Part shown: piece after piece, positions 1 to 21,562 of the stretch
How the letters are laid out: the number at the start of each line of letters is the position of its first letter
Position numbering within the stretch: the first letter of the stretch is position 1
From: a virus
DNA length: 23,463 nt
Strand: one strand, 5' to 3'
Virus record (IMG/VR): IMGVR_UViG_3300022868_000099
Coordinates: 1-23,463 of that record
Made by a program: the position numbers and the translations under genes
Notes under the pieces: model-generated
The model's input: the letters and a program-made list of their open reading frames with translations, nothing else
What the model was told of the DNA's origin: nothing
Databases searched by the model: none

Positions 1-1011
1 TTTGCCTATTTGTTGTGTTATTTCTTCATTTGAAATATAAATATCATCAATATTATATTTATTTACTAATTTTTCTAATACATAATCTTCATATCCTTGT
101 AAATAAAAAATTTTTTCATTTAATTTATATTCTTTATAAGATGATTTATTTGCTTTTTTAAAAAAATTATCAAAAAATTTTGAATTTTTCATATAATGTG
201 TTTCACCGTACTTTTTTAAACAAGTTTCCACAAATTTTTGATAAATAATCTTTGATTTTAATGGTGAAGTAACATTAAAATTTTTCATTAATGTATTTTG
301 AGATTTCTTTTTTATTTTTTCATTCATCATAGGAGATTTATAACCATATTTTTTTATATTTGTTTCAATTGCTTTATCAATATTTAATTGATGTTTCATA
401 GGATTATTTTCTCCAAAATTATTAATCCATGTTTTAATAATTTTTTCTTTCATTCCATTTATTTTAAAATTATGTTCAACACCATATCTTTTTTTTAATG
501 TTTCTTTTGATTTTTTGTGAGTTTCTTTTAATTCAAAAGGAGATACATATCCATATTTTTCAATCATCATTTTTTTATATTCATTAGTTTTTGTATATGA
601 TATTTCTCCATATTTTTCTAAATTAGTTTTTTGTTGTTTTTTTATGTTATTATATTTTTCATCACCATATTTTTCTAATTTAGTTTGTTTTATTTTTTTT
701 GTTTTTTCTATAGTTTGTTTTTTTGATAACTGTCCTTTTATTTTTGATAAACAGTTTAAATCTCCACAACTTTTATTATAAAATCTTTTTTTGTTCCAAG
801 TTAATTTTGTCCCACAATCACATTTTTGAATTTCGTTATAATTATTTTTAATATTAAAAATTCTTTCAGAAATAGTAACATTATTTAAAAACTTTGTTTT
901 TGATATAATTATTTCTAAAAAATCATTATTTTTTTTGATTGATTTCATAATTTGTCCTGTACTTTTTGATTTTTTTATTCTTTCAATTAAATTTTCTTTT
1001 GTTAGTTGCAT
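1..1011 (-). CDS. Homing-endonuclease-like protein, partial (3' end off window)
   Basis: The frame is open for 337 codons from the ATG at 1011 to the window edge, so the C-terminus is missing. Residues about 64-87 hold four cysteines (CDCG then CGDLNC), a zinc-ribbon-like module. From about residue 110 to 290 come eight copies of a short module built around KYG or a variant (EKYGD, EKYGE, EKYGY, KRYGV, NNFGE, KKYGY, KNFNV, KKYGE), like the modular DNA-binding repeats of phage homing endonucleases. Near the edge is LQGYEDYVLEKL, resembling the start of the EDxHD/Vsr-like nuclease domain of I-Bth0305I relatives. It lies 64 nt downstream of a uvsX half-gene ending in a split-intein half, the arrangement described for 'fractured' genes with free-standing endonucleases. 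Its own promoter-like motif is at 1032-1042. The family call is from recalled motifs. The catalytic residues are mostly outside the window. Confidence 0.7.
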   Translation of the reverse strand, partial: MQLTKENLIERIKKSKSTGQIMKSIKKNNDFLEIIISKTKFLNNVTISERIFNIKNNYNEIQKCDCGTKLTWNKKRFYNKSCGDLNCLSKIKGQLSKKQTIEKTKKIKQTKLEKYGDEKYNNIKKQQKTNLEKYGEISYTKTNEYKKMMIEKYGYVSPFELKETHKKSKETLKKRYGVEHNFKINGMKEKIIKTWINNFGENNPMKHQLNIDKAIETNIKKYGYKSPMMNEKIKKKSQNTLMKNFNVTSPLKSKIIYQKFVETCLKKYGETHYMKNSKFFDNFFKKANKSSYKEYKLNEKIFYLQGYEDYVLEKLVNKYNIDDIYISNEEITQQIGK

Positions 1012-1031
1012 AAATGATATTTCTTTTTTAA

Positions 1032-1042
1032 TTATATATTAA
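1032..1042 (-). promoter_or_regulatory. Promoter-like motif before the endonuclease gene
   Basis: The minus strand reads TTAATATATAA, ending about 20 nt before the ATG at 1011. The same motif at the same distance precedes the genes starting at 13594, 13733 and 18901. It suggests the endonuclease is transcribed independently of the uvsX half upstream. Confidence 0.45.
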
Positions 1043-1075
1043 TTTAAAAATACCATTTATTACTACTAACCAAGT

Positions 1076-2008
1076 CTATTCACTTATAGCTAAAATAATT
1101 TGATTTTCTTTCAAATCTTCTGCTGCAATCCAACAAGAAGAATTTTCATCTTCATTCCAATCTTCATTAATCAAAAATTTATGATTTTTTGTGCATTTCA
1201 TGATTTCTCCATCATCTAAAATTATTTCCATTATTGTTGAATTATTAAATTCAACAATATCTTCAACAGGTTTATCACCATCTAATGTTTTAACATATTC
1301 TCCAATATTAATCAAATTAATATATTTATATGTATCATCAGACATTAAAACTTGGGTTTCTTTTGTGAAACACATATAAACATGATTTGTTGCAACAAGA
1401 GGAATATTTAAAAATCCTAAATCGGAACTAATAATTCTAAATAAAGATTTAATTGCTTTTGCTCTTGACATATCAACTTTATTTTTTCCTTCTTTTGCAT
1501 CTTCAACTTCTTTTCTTGAAGCTAATTGTCCAATAGAATCTAAAAATATAATAGTTTTTCCAATATCAACACCTGCTAATTTTTTTTCTTTTAATTCATC
1601 TAATAATTGAGTTAACATAATTTTAATATCTTCAACTTTATTTGAACGAATTAACATAAATTTATTATCAATATCAATTCCAAAATCTACTAAATCTGAT
1701 AATTCTATTGATTGTTCAGTATCAATATAAATAACATTATATCCAATTTTTTGAGCATTTCTTGCAATATTATAACAAATATATGATTTACCAACTGATT
1801 CAGGCCCAGCAAATACTGTAAATCTATTATCTGGCACACCTCCATTTAATATGGATTTTGTTAATAGTGCATTTAACATATAAACCCCTGTATCAATATA
1901 TTGTTTTTCTTTTAAATTATCATCTATTAAAATTGCTGTTTTTTTGGAAATATTTTCCATCATTGTTTTTATATCTTTAAAAGATAAATCGGGACTTTTT
2001 TTTGCCAT
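1076..2008 (-). CDS. uvsX: UvsX/RecA recombinase N-terminal part fused to split-intein N-half
   Basis: Residues 1-212 are the N-terminal part of a phage RecA-family strand-exchange ATPase. They show Walker A GPESVGKS at 68-75, the YIDTE catalytic glutamate at E98, Walker B IIFLDSIG at 153-160, and the conserved ATNHVY at 206-211. At C213 the RecA homology stops and an intein begins. Block A is CFTKETQVLM (213-222) and block B is CTKNH with T273 and H276. The frame ends with a TAG after residue 310, giving an intein piece of 98 residues, the usual size of a split-intein N-half. The rest of UvsX and the C-intein are not between here and position 1 and should lie past the endonuclease gene. The N-exon should be made separately and joined to the C-exon by protein trans-splicing. 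All elements are visible except the partner half; trans-splicing is inference. Confidence 0.9.
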   Translation of the reverse strand: MAKKSPDLSFKDIKTMMENISKKTAILIDDNLKEKQYIDTGVYMLNALLTKSILNGGVPDNRFTVFAGPESVGKSYICYNIARNAQKIGYNVIYIDTEQSIELSDLVDFGIDIDNKFMLIRSNKVEDIKIMLTQLLDELKEKKLAGVDIGKTIIFLDSIGQLASRKEVEDAKEGKNKVDMSRAKAIKSLFRIISSDLGFLNIPLVATNHVYMCFTKETQVLMSDDTYKYINLINIGEYVKTLDGDKPVEDIVEFNNSTIMEIILDDGEIMKCTKNHKFLINEDWNEDENSSCWIAAEDLKENQIILAISE

Positions 2009-8767: not shown

Positions 8768-10810
8768 ATGATTTTTAATCAATTAAATTTAAAAGATGTA
8801 ATATTTGTTGGAATAGTTGAAGATGTAAATGATGAAAAACGTATAGGAAGAATAAAAGTTCGAGTACAAAATGTTTTTAATGAAATTCCATTAGAAGATA
8901 TTCCTTGGGCAGAACCACAACGTAGTTTAAATGGTAAATCATTTTGTGTTCCTGCTATTGGAAAATTAGTTAATGTTATTTTTGTACATGGAAATGTTTA
9001 TGAACCACAATATATTTATTCTGAAAAATATAATACAAATTTACAACAAAAATTAAATGACCTAGATGATAAAGAATATGCTAATTTTACAGCATTATTA
9101 ATGGATCATAGAACACAAATGTATGCTGATGATACAAATCTAAGATTAGATTATAAATTTAATCAATTATCAATAAAAGATGATGGTATAGATATACATT
9201 TAAAAGATAATAATCAAGAATTACATTTAGGTCATAATTATTCAAATCAAAGTGCGATGTTAGGTGATCATTTTTTAGATTGGTTTGATGGATTTATGAA
9301 TACATTATTAAAACCAATATCATTAATTGGTAATACTGGTGTGCCTATTGTAAAACCATTAGTTGATATTGAAATTCAAAAATATCAGGTATTGAAAAAA
9401 ACATTTTTAAGTCAACATGTAAAAATTGTTGATAATGGAAGTTGTAAAAATGTTGGTGAAAATAGAAAAGATTCACCAGCACAAGATGATGTTATTGATA
9501 TTAATGATGATAAAATATTAAATTCTCCACAAATTAAACCAGAAATTAAGAAAAAAATTACTGAAAAAAGAGAAGAAGATAATACTGAAGTTCAAACAAG
9601 TAAACCTAATCCAGCAGATAAATTAGTTGATGATGGTAAAATTGTTGGAGGAGGAGAAGATCAAACTGGGGATGCACCAGAAATTAAATATATTGAACCA
9701 GAAATTTTAAATAATAGTGAATGGTTAAATAAAAATCTGTCTGGAGATGAAAAATATAATTTTGAAACAACTGAAAATGTAGAAGAAAGAAAAATATTTA
9801 TACCAGAAATAGAAACAGAATCAACACCAAGTGATCCTTATGATAATTTTTGGGTTGGTAGAAAAGGTAGATCTGCAGATTCATTTGAAGCACCACCAGT
9901 TGAAAATGAAACTTATGGATCATATACAACAACTTCTGATTCCCCTGTTGGATATACTTCATCAGGTAAAAAAGGACCAACAAAAACATTAAAAAGTGGA
10001 AAGATATTAGAAAATGGAAAAATTAATGCTAGTGATTTAACTGAAGTTGAAGGGTTTACAGTGAAGGGAAAAGAGATGATAATTTTATTAGAAAAAAATG
10101 CATCAAAAGAATTTATAAAATTAAATAATGCTTGGAAAGCTGCATCAGAAAATAAATCTGGAAAACCACTAGATATTTCCGGAGAAGATTCTGCATATAG
10201 AACTGTAGCACAACAAATAGCTTTGCAAATCTCTCAAGGAAAAGATGTTGCGGCATCCGCAGGATCAAGTCCTCATGGTTGGGGTATTGCCATTGATATT
10301 AATGGCACAAGAAGAATTGATAGTCAACATAAAGGGGGGACTGGCTTATATAAATGGTTAAAAAAGAAATCACAAGAAAAAGAATGGAAAATTCAAAGAA
10401 TTAAATGGGGTGGTCCATCATCTGAAAGATATGCAAAAAGAAATAATGTTGTATCTGAAAATTGGGAAAGATGGCATTGGATGTACACCGGACCTACTGT
10501 TTATAACGAAGAATCACCAGTAAAAAAGAAACAATTATCATATACTCTTGTTTCTTATAAAAGTTTTGCACAAAAATTATATGATGCGATGAATAAATCT
10601 AATGATGATGAAGATGCTATTTATGTTGTTATAAAAAAAATGAAAACTGATGATGATGTTCATGAATTAAATACCGCTTTTGGAATAAAAATTTTAAAAA
10701 AGAAAAAAAGAAATTTAACTCAATGGTTTAAAAAAGAATTAAAAACTTCAGAACTTGAATTTCTTAATCAAATATTAAGAGACAAAAATATAAAGACACT
10801 TTTTATCTAA
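8768..10810 (+). CDS. Hub spike protein: gp5-like OB fold with M15 peptidase and annexin-like C-terminus
   Basis: A 680-residue multidomain protein. Residues 1-90 form a gp5/VgrG-type OB fold (VGIVEDVNDEKRIGRIKVRV, then IPWAEP and NVIFVHGNVYEPQYIYS). About 100-175 include a region reading LRLDYKFNQLSIKDDGIDIH. A long charged linker (about 225-410) follows. About 420-580 is a zinc D,D-peptidase domain of the M15/LAS type. It has AYRT at 476-479, S501-P-H503-G-W-G-I-A-I-D510 fitting SxHxxGxAxD, and WHW at 569-571, so the zinc ligands H503, D510 and H570 are present. Residues about 600-680 resemble a repeat ending in a LTQWFKKEL...LNQILRDKNIK pattern seen at C-termini of other Bacteroidota-phage proteins. 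It should sit at the tail tip and cut peptide cross-links of peptidoglycan during entry, replacing the gp5 lysozyme. Confidence 0.8.
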   Translation: MIFNQLNLKDVIFVGIVEDVNDEKRIGRIKVRVQNVFNEIPLEDIPWAEPQRSLNGKSFCVPAIGKLVNVIFVHGNVYEPQYIYSEKYNTNLQQKLNDLDDKEYANFTALLMDHRTQMYADDTNLRLDYKFNQLSIKDDGIDIHLKDNNQELHLGHNYSNQSAMLGDHFLDWFDGFMNTLLKPISLIGNTGVPIVKPLVDIEIQKYQVLKKTFLSQHVKIVDNGSCKNVGENRKDSPAQDDVIDINDDKILNSPQIKPEIKKKITEKREEDNTEVQTSKPNPADKLVDDGKIVGGGEDQTGDAPEIKYIEPEILNNSEWLNKNLSGDEKYNFETTENVEERKIFIPEIETESTPSDPYDNFWVGRKGRSADSFEAPPVENETYGSYTTTSDSPVGYTSSGKKGPTKTLKSGKILENGKINASDLTEVEGFTVKGKEMIILLEKNASKEFIKLNNAWKAASENKSGKPLDISGEDSAYRTVAQQIALQISQGKDVAASAGSSPHGWGIAIDINGTRRIDSQHKGGTGLYKWLKKKSQEKEWKIQRIKWGGPSSERYAKRNNVVSENWERWHWMYTGPTVYNEESPVKKKQLSYTLVSYKSFAQKLYDAMNKSNDDEDAIYVVIKKMKTDDDVHELNTAFGIKILKKKKRNLTQWFKKELKTSELEFLNQILRDKNIKTLFI

Positions 10811-19738: not shown

Positions 19739-20695
19739 ATGAAAAATATGAGTGAAAATTTAAATGAAAATTTAGCAGATGATTTTTTGTTTTCCGGAGT
19801 GAAAGCAGATGATGAAACAATGTCAGTTTTTGACAACAAACCAACCATCAATGATGGAATTTACAGACCAAAATTAACTGATGCAAAAGATAAAAAAATA
19901 GGATATCGTGCAACTTTAAGATTTCTTCCTAACATTTTAGAAAATGGGAAAATTGGACCAAGTGCCATAGAAAAACATGTACATTATGTGGATATTAAAA
20001 ATGTTTCTGGTATATCTGGATATTATGATTGTAAGAAAAATTATGATAAAGATTGTCCATTATGTACTGAATATTGGAAATTATTTAATTCTAAAAATGC
20101 AGCAGACAACGCAAAAGCACAATTATTAAATAGAACAACTAAATATTATTCTTATGTATTAATTGTTGAAGATGAACAATATCCAGATTTAGTAGGAAAA
20201 GTTTTAGTATATCCTTATGGTTATACTATTAAAAATAAAATTAATTCTGAAAGACAAGGAGAAGTGTCGGGGAAAAGTGTAAATGTTTTTGATATAATTT
20301 ATGGGAAAGATTTTAAATTAATTATCAAAGAAAAAGCAGGATATCAAAATTATGATACGTCTGCATTTACGGATACAGAACCACTTAGACTTTATGACGA
20401 AAAAAAAGAAATATGGAGATCTGTACCAATTGATGAAAATGGTAAAATTTCAAATTCAAAAGTACAAATAAAAATTAAAGAATTTTTAACTGTAAAAGAG
20501 GTGAATTTAGATGATTATAAACCTAAAATATGGGATGATGAAATGCTAACAAAAATTAATTCAATATTCGCTAATTTGAATGGAGAAGAAGTTTATGTTG
20601 CAAATCAACAAGCTACATCAACCGAGAAAAAAGAAGTTGAATCATTTCAAAATGATGATGTTACTGCTGCAGATGATTTCTTTTCAATTGATTAA
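19739..20695 (+). CDS. Single-stranded DNA-binding protein, gp32-like
   Basis: 318 residues with the gp32 plan. A short N-terminal part is followed by the core OB region (IGYRATLRFLPNILENGKIG, about 54-73). The zinc-binding subdomain has H82, C98, C106 and C109 (HYVDIKN ... CKKNYDKDCPLC), close to the H-C-C-C ligands of T4 gp32. Then come TTKYYSYVLIVEDEQYPDLV, GKVLVYPYGYTIKNKIN, and an acidic C-terminal tail (NDDVTAADDFFSID) of the type that contacts replication and recombination proteins. It would coat single-stranded DNA during replication and work with UvsX, present in the same window. The start at 19739 is followed by another ATG three codons in (MSENLNE), equally possible. It is a single-gene unit between the repeat-rich leader and the terminator at 20723-20757. 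Confidence 0.9.
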   Translation: MKNMSENLNENLADDFLFSGVKADDETMSVFDNKPTINDGIYRPKLTDAKDKKIGYRATLRFLPNILENGKIGPSAIEKHVHYVDIKNVSGISGYYDCKKNYDKDCPLCTEYWKLFNSKNAADNAKAQLLNRTTKYYSYVLIVEDEQYPDLVGKVLVYPYGYTIKNKINSERQGEVSGKSVNVFDIIYGKDFKLIIKEKAGYQNYDTSAFTDTEPLRLYDEKKEIWRSVPIDENGKISNSKVQIKIKEFLTVKEVNLDDYKPKIWDDEMLTKINSIFANLNGEEVYVANQQATSTEKKEVESFQNDDVTAADDFFSID

Positions 20696-20757: not shown

Positions 20758-20883
20758 ATTATTTTTTGATAAAAAATCAATCCAACCTTCCCAACCAGTA
20801 TTTTTATGGATAATATAAAATCTTTCTTTTACTTCAGTTAATGTTAATTCTTTTTTTCTTTTAATTTTAATATTATTTTCTTT
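20734..20883 (-). other. Start-less reading frame after clpP (+1 frame)
   Basis: A frame of 49 codons without ATG, GTG or TTG runs from just inside the clpP 3' end to the stop at 20734-20736. It encodes ENNIKIKRKKELTLTEVKER, then FYIIHKNTGWEGWIDFLSKN and NKKEPLIF. The last ~35 residues look like ordinary protein. It is in +1 relative to clpP and overlaps its last 11 nt, at an A-rich stretch. It could be reached by +1 frameshifting at the clpP end (AAA AGA AAA TAA), by an AUU start, or be a decayed gene. Confidence 0.35.
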
Positions 20884-21562
20884 TTAAAATATCATCAATC
20901 AAACCATATTCTTTTGCTTCCTGAGCAATCATCCAATAATCTCTGTCTGAATCTTTTTCAATCTTTTTATATGTTTGTCCAGAATGAGAGGATAAAATTT
21001 CATATAATTCTTTTTTAAGAATATTGATTTGTTTAACTACAATTTCCATATCAGATGCTTGACCTTGGGTTCCACCCATTGGTTGATGTATAAGTATTCT
21101 TGAATGTGGTAATGCAAATCTTTTACCATCTTGACCTGCAGTTAATAATATAGCTCCCATTGATGCTGCCATTCCTGTACAAATTGTGCTTACATCAGGT
21201 TCAATTAATTGCATAGTATCATAAATTCCTAATCCTGCATGAACACTACCACCAGGACTATTAATATAAATTGTTATATCTTTTTCTGGATCAGTTGATG
21301 TAAGAAATAATAATTGTGCTTGAATTACATTAGCAACATAATCATTAATATCAGTTCCTAAAAAAATAATTCTGTCCATTTGAAGTCTGGAAAATACATC
21401 CATTTGTGCAACATTCATTTGTCTTTCTTCAATAATTGTTGGAGAAATATAATTATTGTTTTTAATTTGTTTACTTACAATACTATTGTAATTATGTAAA
21501 TTCATACTTGATATTCCTTGACTTTTTGCAAATTTTGTAAAATCTTTATTCATATTATTCAT
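20873..21562 (-). CDS. clpP: ATP-dependent Clp protease proteolytic subunit
   Basis: 229 residues with a complete serine-protease triad: S134 in GMAASMGAIL, H159 in SRILIHQPMGG, and D208 in DSDRDYW. The Gly-rich oxyanion segment INSPGGSVHAGLGIYDTM is intact. The N-terminal ~38 residues are a variable extension, followed by PTIIEERQMNVAQMDVFSRL, then QMDRIIFLGT. This wording is characteristic of Bacteroidota ClpP. It would form tetradecameric barrels that degrade substrates fed by a host Clp ATPase, or replace or modify host ClpP. No ClpX or ClpA is encoded in the window. It is the last complete gene of the minus-strand cluster. Phage-encoded ClpP is known from several large phages, where it can act in prohead processing or host takeover. 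Confidence 0.93.
   Translation of the reverse strand: MNNMNKDFTKFAKSQGISSMNLHNYNSIVSKQIKNNNYISPTIIEERQMNVAQMDVFSRLQMDRIIFLGTDINDYVANVIQAQLLFLTSTDPEKDITIYINSPGGSVHAGLGIYDTMQLIEPDVSTICTGMAASMGAILLTAGQDGKRFALPHSRILIHQPMGGTQGQASDMEIVVKQINILKKELYEILSSHSGQTYKKIEKDSDRDYWMIAQEAKEYGLIDDILKRK

What the first reader, a model, noticed from the sequence alone, without database searches (positions are those of the whole stretch)
1..2008. Fractured uvsX: split-intein N-half plus free-standing homing endonuclease
UvsX stops at C213 (after ATNHVYM), where an intein N-half of 98 residues begins with block A CFTKETQVLM and block B with T273/H276. It then ends with a real stop codon, and a separate endonuclease-like gene follows. 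This is the 'fractured gene' arrangement known from other phage genes: two half-genes joined only by protein trans-splicing, with an endonuclease between them. A recombinase made in this way could use its own repair activity to spread the element. The C-half (IntC plus UvsX C-part) should lie directly past position 1.
Basis: partly seen in the sequence, partly recalled or inferred. Interest (0 to 1): 0.8.

Follow-up and report, generated by a model that had tools for sequence, protein, structure and literature searches.

The report
Phage recombinase split by an intein
A large phage makes its recombination enzyme UvsX from two separate half-genes whose protein products should be stitched together by a split intein, with a DNA-cutting enzyme coded in the gap; this arrangement is known from other phage genes, but relatives show the same insertion site empty, uninterrupted, split and half-decayed, which makes the making and unmaking of such broken genes testable.

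Summary
UvsX in the window breaks at C213 into a 98-residue N-intein ending in a real stop. The predicted C-half exists: IMG/VR contig L002, identical to the window over all 12,708 overlapping bases compared, continues past window position 1 and encodes IntC (ending HN|T) plus UvsX-C. Together the halves give a 403-residue UvsX. Intein-free relatives have the exact empty site.

One correction: as assembled, the endonuclease is not free-standing in this phage. Its frame runs without a stop into IntC-UvsX-C, through a 12-A run. One A fewer would restore the stop/start overlap (ATGA) seen in two relatives, so the fusion needs read-level proof.

The endonuclease is a DUF7487 protein with a probable PD-(D/E)XK nuclease domain. 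Its start codon sits in a strong RNA hairpin whose loop carries a promoter-like AATATATAA, resembling the known late control of T4 homing endonucleases.

The same UvsX site is empty, contiguous, split with an endonuclease, or split with an endonuclease remnant in related phages. Intein and host-gene similarities conflict, which suggests mobility. Fractured uvsX genes at another site are already in cultured T4-like phages. Verdict: a genuine new member of a known kind.

The parts
1373..2008 (-). UvsX N-part (residues 1-212, N-extein)
   Evidence: phrog_97 UvsX-like recombinase E 1.4e-48; Pfam RecA E 6.4e-10; ends ATNHVYM, exactly at the junction seen empty in L003 (NHVYL|TQDMF)
1076..1372 (-). 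N-intein (IntN, 98 aa, C213 to E310) plus TAG stop
   Evidence: Intein_splicing E 2.2e-6 and Hint 1.6e-5; C213, T273, H276 invariant in site-a relatives; joined IntN+IntC matches Pho RadA intein E 3.5e-7, DnaE inteins and gp41-1 (E 0.004) in the PDB; stop conserved in position in relatives
1001..1070 (-). RNA hairpin that buries the endonuclease start codon in its 3' arm
   Evidence: MFE -23.8 vs shuffles -12.7 +/- 2.5, z -4.4, 0 of 200; AUG pairing probability 0.93-1.0 with the 5' arm, 0.07-0.5 without
1032..1040 (-). promoter-like AATATATAA in the hairpin loop
   Evidence: TATATAA lies within 60 nt upstream of 12 of 25 ORFs in the window; for TATATA, 13 of 25 against 9% of random 60-mers; ATATATA invariant in all five site-a loci that carry the endonuclease
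1..1011 (-). endonuclease (DUF7487), first 337 residues; the frame continues beyond position 1 (647 aa in L002: endonuclease ~1-415, IntC 416-456, UvsX-C 457-647)
   Evidence: DUF7487 E 1.4e-34, 7e-47 for the whole frame; phrog_3339 homing endonuclease E 6.9e-14; continuation L002:6998-8941, no mismatch to the window

Best explanation
This is a fractured uvsX gene. The first gene makes UvsX-N-IntN and the second makes IntC-UvsX-C. The two intein pieces associate and splice in trans, releasing a seamless 403-residue UvsX with Thr as the +1 residue (inferred from intact catalytic residues; not shown). Between them lies a homing-type endonuclease (DUF7487, probable PD-(D/E)XK nuclease domain) that would cut intein-free uvsX alleles and be copied in by recombination (inferred). 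On read-through early mRNA its start codon is buried in a hairpin; a promoter in the hairpin loop would give late mRNA that lacks the 5' arm and lets it be translated (inferred from sequence and folding). Because UvsX is needed early, IntC-UvsX-C is most likely started at its own ATG. The endonuclease-IntC-UvsX-C fusion read in this assembly would then be an additional, late product, and a one-base change in the A12 run can switch it on or off.
For: C-half found in L002, identical to the window over the 8,008 and 4,700 bases compared. IntC recognised above the family's cut-off (TIGR01443, 22.5 bits against 15.6). Joined IntN+IntC matches solved inteins. Extein halves sum to 403 aa against 402 and 414 in intact relatives, with an exact empty site. 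Five further phages carry the split form at the same site with the stop in the same place. Four have a stand-alone endonuclease 45-46% identical to this one. Endonuclease C-domain resembles PD-(D/E)XK enzymes: TnsA Z 7.6, I-Bth0305I Z 6.1, Vsr Z 6.0. Hairpin and promoter-like motif, with the same logic described for I-TevI, segB and Aeh1 mobE (PMC2988022). Mobility: L052's host gene is closer to L002 (64% vs 60% to L054) but its intein is closer to L054 (70% vs 49%); intein carriers as one clade are rejected for the host gene (AU p 0.00024).
Against: No splicing, cutting or expression data. The endonuclease-IntC fusion, if real and obligatory, would not fit a separate C-half. The hairpin is strong only in this phage; in relatives z is -0.6 to -1.8 and covariation is weak (19 of 500 shuffles reach it). 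Best PDB matches to the nuclease domain are at middling Z (under 8) and Foldseek gave none at E 0.001.
Confidence: 0.88

Rival explanations
1. A nicked full-length intein: in this phage the only C-precursor is endonuclease-IntC-UvsX-C made as one chain, so the endonuclease stays attached to IntC, as in an ordinary full-length intein except that the chain is broken between IntN and the endonuclease.
For: The L002 frame runs 647 aa without a stop, with the endonuclease in the place it has in full-length inteins; the IntC frame is open upstream for 424 codons.
Against: The fusion depends on the length of an A12 run in one contig; 11 or 14 A restore a stop at the IntC ATG. L014 begins exactly at the A12 run, which may mean an assembly branch there. 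Stand-alone endonucleases in all four relatives with a full-length one. The endonuclease start is buried on early mRNA, so early UvsX would be starved of its C-half.
Confidence: 0.1
2. Decaying element: the intein no longer splices and UvsX is lost or replaced.
For: Related elements do decay: L055 keeps only a 57-residue endonuclease remnant.
Against: Catalytic residues are intact on both halves, both exteins align end to end with intact UvsX, and neither half has a frameshift.
Confidence: 0.04
3. Genes-in-pieces without splicing: the two UvsX parts work as a non-covalent complex, as reported for Aeh1 NrdA split by mobE (PMC2988022).
For: Such split enzymes are known in T4-like phages.
Against: Both halves carry intein sequence with Cys1, TxxH, HN and Thr+1, unneeded for simple association; a contiguous intein at the same site exists in L053.
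Confidence: 0.03
4. Assembly or read error created the break.
For: AT-rich sequence with homopolymers; the window ends inside the endonuclease.
Against: The same break, with endonuclease or remnant, in five other phages; TAG at the same codon in L054; TAA soon after and a different frame downstream, so one error cannot explain it.
Confidence: 0.01

Closest known systems
Fractured genes with split inteins (Dassa et al. 2009, NAR 37:2560; paper not held here, content recalled from its abstract)
   Same: Enzyme of DNA metabolism broken in two, IntN and IntC at the broken ends, endonuclease gene between, mainly in phages, control elements with the endonuclease
   Different: Host gene uvsX at the NHVY|T site; endonuclease of the DUF7487 type; endonuclease frame joined to IntC in this assembly. 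Whether uvsX was among the eight published enzyme types could not be checked.
Fractured uvsX of cultured Straboviridae (Yersinia phage vB_YenM_TG1, Proteus phage Pm5461, Salmonella phage CF-SP2, Vibrio phage EniLVp02)
   Same: uvsX in two CDS with an ORF, annotated as a homing endonuclease in TG1, Pm5461 and EniLVp02, between; endonuclease stop overlaps IntC ATG by 4 nt in TG1, CF-SP2 and EniLVp02
   Different: Intein sits about 14 residues further on (GG|C ... HN|TG) and is only about 30-38% identical; GIY-YIG-type endonuclease in TG1
Contiguous UvsX mini-intein of L053 (IMGVR_UViG_3300009502_001249)
   Same: Same insertion site, intein 50% identical to this one and 77-80% to the split ones of L010, L012, L055
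   Different: One 567-aa ORF, no endonuclease, no break
I-TevI / segB / Aeh1 mobE late control (PMC2988022)
   Same: Hairpin hides the start region on early mRNA, promoter placed so that late mRNA lacks the 5' arm
   Different: Here the start codon itself is paired and the promoter-like motif is AATATATAA; no RNA data

Membership tests
Fractured gene with split intein | Host enzyme coding region broken into two ORFs that together cover it | tested here: met
   212 + 191 = 403 aa against 402 and 414 aa in intact relatives; exact empty site
Fractured gene with split intein | IntN with Cys/Ser 1 and block B TxxH at the end of the first ORF | tested here: met
   C213, T273, H276; Intein_splicing E 2.2e-6
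Fractured gene with split intein | IntC ending HN followed by C, S or T at the start of the second half | tested here: met
   SHN|T in L002; TIGR01443 22.5 bits, cut-off 15.6
Fractured gene with split intein | Endonuclease gene between the halves | tested here: met
   DUF7487 / phrog_3339 homing endonuclease
Fractured gene with split intein | Endonuclease free-standing | tested here: inconclusive
   In frame with IntC in L002 through an A12 run; separate in L010, L012, L052, L054
Fractured gene with split intein | Trans-splicing | not testable with these tools
   needs co-expression
Full-length (bifunctional) intein | IntN, endonuclease and IntC in one uninterrupted ORF | tested here: not met
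   TAG after IntN, conserved; endonuclease starts in another frame
DUF7487 PD-(D/E)XK homing endonuclease | Pfam DUF7487 above cut-off | tested here: met
   160.6 bits, cut-off 27
DUF7487 PD-(D/E)XK homing endonuclease | PD-(D/E)XK fold and motif | tested here: inconclusive
   YYPDFYI...EVKS conserved; TnsA Z 7.6, I-Bth0305I Z 6.1, Vsr Z 6.0 over about 80-104 residues; no Foldseek match at E 0.001
DUF7487 PD-(D/E)XK homing endonuclease | Cuts intein-free allele and homes | not testable with these tools
   only indirect: intein/host-gene conflict
I-TevI-like late control | Hairpin that hides the endonuclease start on early mRNA | tested here: met
   predicted fold z -4.4; AUG pairing 0.93-1.0 vs 0.07-0.5; weak in relatives
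I-TevI-like late control | Active late promoter inside the element | not testable with these tools
   AATATATAA motif only

The most novel reading that the evidence does not exclude
The phage makes a nicked full-length intein: UvsX-N-IntN plus an endonuclease-IntC-UvsX-C chain, so that splicing releases an endonuclease still joined to half an intein. The A12 run acts as a length switch (or a transcriptional slippage site) between fused and stand-alone endonuclease. Together with L053, L055 and the separate-ORF relatives, it would show live transitions between contiguous, split, fused and decayed states of one intein.
Probability: 0.2. Interest if true: 0.7.

Novelty: new member of a known kind. 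Interest (0 to 1): 0.5.

Why it matters
How a contiguous intein becomes two genes, and whether it can go back, is an open question in intein evolution. Here one insertion site in one gene of related phages is seen empty, with a contiguous mini-intein, split with a full endonuclease, split with an endonuclease remnant, and with the endonuclease frame joined to IntC. That is a natural series for testing order and reversibility. It also adds a group of split inteins, at a UvsX site distinct from the one used in cultured T4-like phages, that could be tested as protein-ligation tools. The host protein is itself the recombinase that T4 homing depends on.

Tried and rejected
Recoding of TAG as an amino acid: rejected, because TAA follows 15 codons later and the next ORF is in another frame. 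A promoter-less endonuclease: unlikely given the motif. Tree order of contiguous L053 against the split forms: L053 falls inside the split group (83/96), but placing it outside is not rejected (AU p 0.08), so gain or loss of the break is left open. Other contigs covering the A12 run: none besides L002, and L014 starts exactly there. Cellular genomes carrying a relative of the query protein: none found. The 2009 fractured-genes paper is not held, and full-text searches brought up no title or abstract on a UvsX intein; the listed papers were not all read. Foldseek with the whole endonuclease-IntC model gave no match at E 0.001. No structure of the joined intein was predicted, because joined sequences are not accepted.

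Full report
WHAT IS IN THE WINDOW. The window is a 23,463-base virus record. On the minus strand, 1076-2008 encodes 310 aa. Residues 1-212 are UvsX (phrog_97 E 1.4e-48; RecA E 6.4e-10). Residues 213-310 look like the N-part of an intein. The frame ends in TAG, then a TAA 15 codons later. A stretch of about 65 nt leads to a second ORF, 1-1011 (-), a DUF7487 protein (E 1.4e-34) that runs off the end of the record.

THE MISSING HALF. IMG/VR contig 3300035698_007621 (L002) overlaps the window with no mismatch over the 8,008 bases and the further 4,700 bases compared, and it continues past window position 1. There the endonuclease frame does not stop where expected. L002:6998-8941 is one ORF of 647 aa: endonuclease (about 1-415), IntC (416-456, MKFINKRVISVKELTEKDTTYDMKVKDSHHYILKNGIVSHN) and UvsX-C (457-647, beginning TQDLF). 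IntC passes the curated cut-off for C-terminal splicing regions. Joined IntN+IntC matches solved inteins (Pho RadA 3.5e-7, DnaE inteins, gp41-1 0.004).

IS THE ENDONUCLEASE FREE-STANDING? In four relatives it is. In L010 and L012 its TGA overlaps the IntC ATG (ATATGA). In L052 it overlaps out of frame, and in L054 a short gap separates the two. In the window's phage the IntC ATG is in frame with the endonuclease, downstream of an A12 run at L002 8218-8229. With 11 or 14 A the endonuclease would stop at ATATGA, as in L010 and L012. The only other contig found that reaches this place, L014 from another dataset, begins exactly at the A12 run. So the fusion is what the assembly says, but one indel decides it, and an in-frame join would occur about one time in three by chance. 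I treat it as unproven. The stop after IntN is different: it is conserved in position across five other phages, with TAG at the same codon in L054.

ONE SITE, FIVE STATES. At this UvsX site, related phages are: empty (L003-L008); interrupted by a contiguous 142-aa mini-intein in one 567-aa ORF (L053); split with a complete endonuclease (L010, L012, L052, L054); split with a 57-residue endonuclease remnant (L055); and split with the endonuclease frame joined to IntC (L002). The intein and its host gene do not share one history. L052's UvsX is 64% identical to L002's and 60% to L054's, but its intein is 49% and 70% identical. Intein carriers as a single clade are rejected for the host gene (AU p 0.00024). 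This is what a mobile element would leave behind. Whether L053 is ancestral or a rejoined split intein is open (AU p 0.08).

THE ENDONUCLEASE AND ITS CONTROL. The endonuclease C-domain was modelled with confidence of about 84-93 over residues 301-400. Its best matches are PD-(D/E)XK enzymes (TnsA Z 7.6, I-Bth0305I 6.1, Vsr 6.0), at middling Z. The conserved YYPDFYI...EVKS fits such a nuclease. Between IntN and the endonuclease an RNA hairpin (window 1001-1070) forms with z -4.4 and pairs the endonuclease start codon with probability 0.93-1.0. If the mRNA begins just after the AATATATAA motif, the pairing falls to 0.07-0.5. That motif is common just upstream of the window's genes, and its core ATATATA is invariant in all five site-a loci that carry the endonuclease. 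The review of T4 mobile elements describes this arrangement for I-TevI, I-TevII, I-TevIII, segB and Aeh1 mobE (PMC2988022). In relatives the hairpin is weaker. If UvsX is early, as in T4, early IntC-UvsX-C must start at its own ATG, so the fusion would be an extra late product (inference).

KNOWN OR NEW. Split uvsX genes with an intervening ORF are already deposited in cultured T4-like phages, without being described as inteins in most annotations. Those inteins sit about 14 residues further on and are about 30-38% identical. The general arrangement was described in 2009 as fractured genes (abstract recalled; paper not held). The same phage carries a second fractured gene, a ribonucleotide reductase. 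I therefore file it as a new member of a known kind, with an unproven variant feature (the fusion) and an unusually complete set of related states.

Noticed in passing
L002:11055-11945, L066:291-3358, L014:2868-5124: A second fractured gene in the same phage: ribonucleotide reductase large chain with IntN, a Vsr-like endonuclease (331 aa), and IntC-RNR-C, the endonuclease stop overlapping the IntC ATG by 4 nt.
   Followed up: partly
L007:7178-10164, L010:6908-8802, L055:6229-9198, L053:3335-6213: gp41-type helicase fractured right after the P-loop GETNVGK, with a very short IntN (about 35 aa) and a long IntC (about 120 aa), an atypically split intein; an endonuclease ORF between.
   Followed up: partly
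L037 (Prevotella phage Lak-B2) 4293-7427: uvsX of Lak-B phages is also split by an intein under TAG=Q reading, near the site used in Straboviridae, with endonuclease-like pieces between.
   Followed up: partly
L036:3270-3340 (Yersinia phage vB_YenM_TG1): Before the endonuclease of this fractured uvsX, an inverted repeat AAGTCCAG...CTGGACTT encloses an exact T4 late promoter TATAAATA, a cultured parallel of the window's hairpin and motif.
   Followed up: partly
L014:2129-2839 against L002:10346-11026: Otherwise near-identical ORF differs by extra NNEEI repeat units between two datasets (236 vs 226 aa).
   Followed up: no
L010:4463-4840: An unrelated 125-aa ORF sits between IntN and the endonuclease in L010 only; absent from L012, L052, L054 and the window's phage.
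   Followed up: no
window 20873-21562 (-) and 19739-20695: A phage ClpP-type protease (PF00574, E 8.7e-78) and a gp32-type single-strand binding protein.
   Followed up: partly
window 8768-10810: Baseplate spike-like protein with an OB domain and a VanY-type peptidase domain in one chain.
   Followed up: partly
window, whole: UvsX is 61.6% identical to that of an uncultured 735-kb phage (LR756501), so the window may come from a relative of the largest known phages.
   Followed up: no
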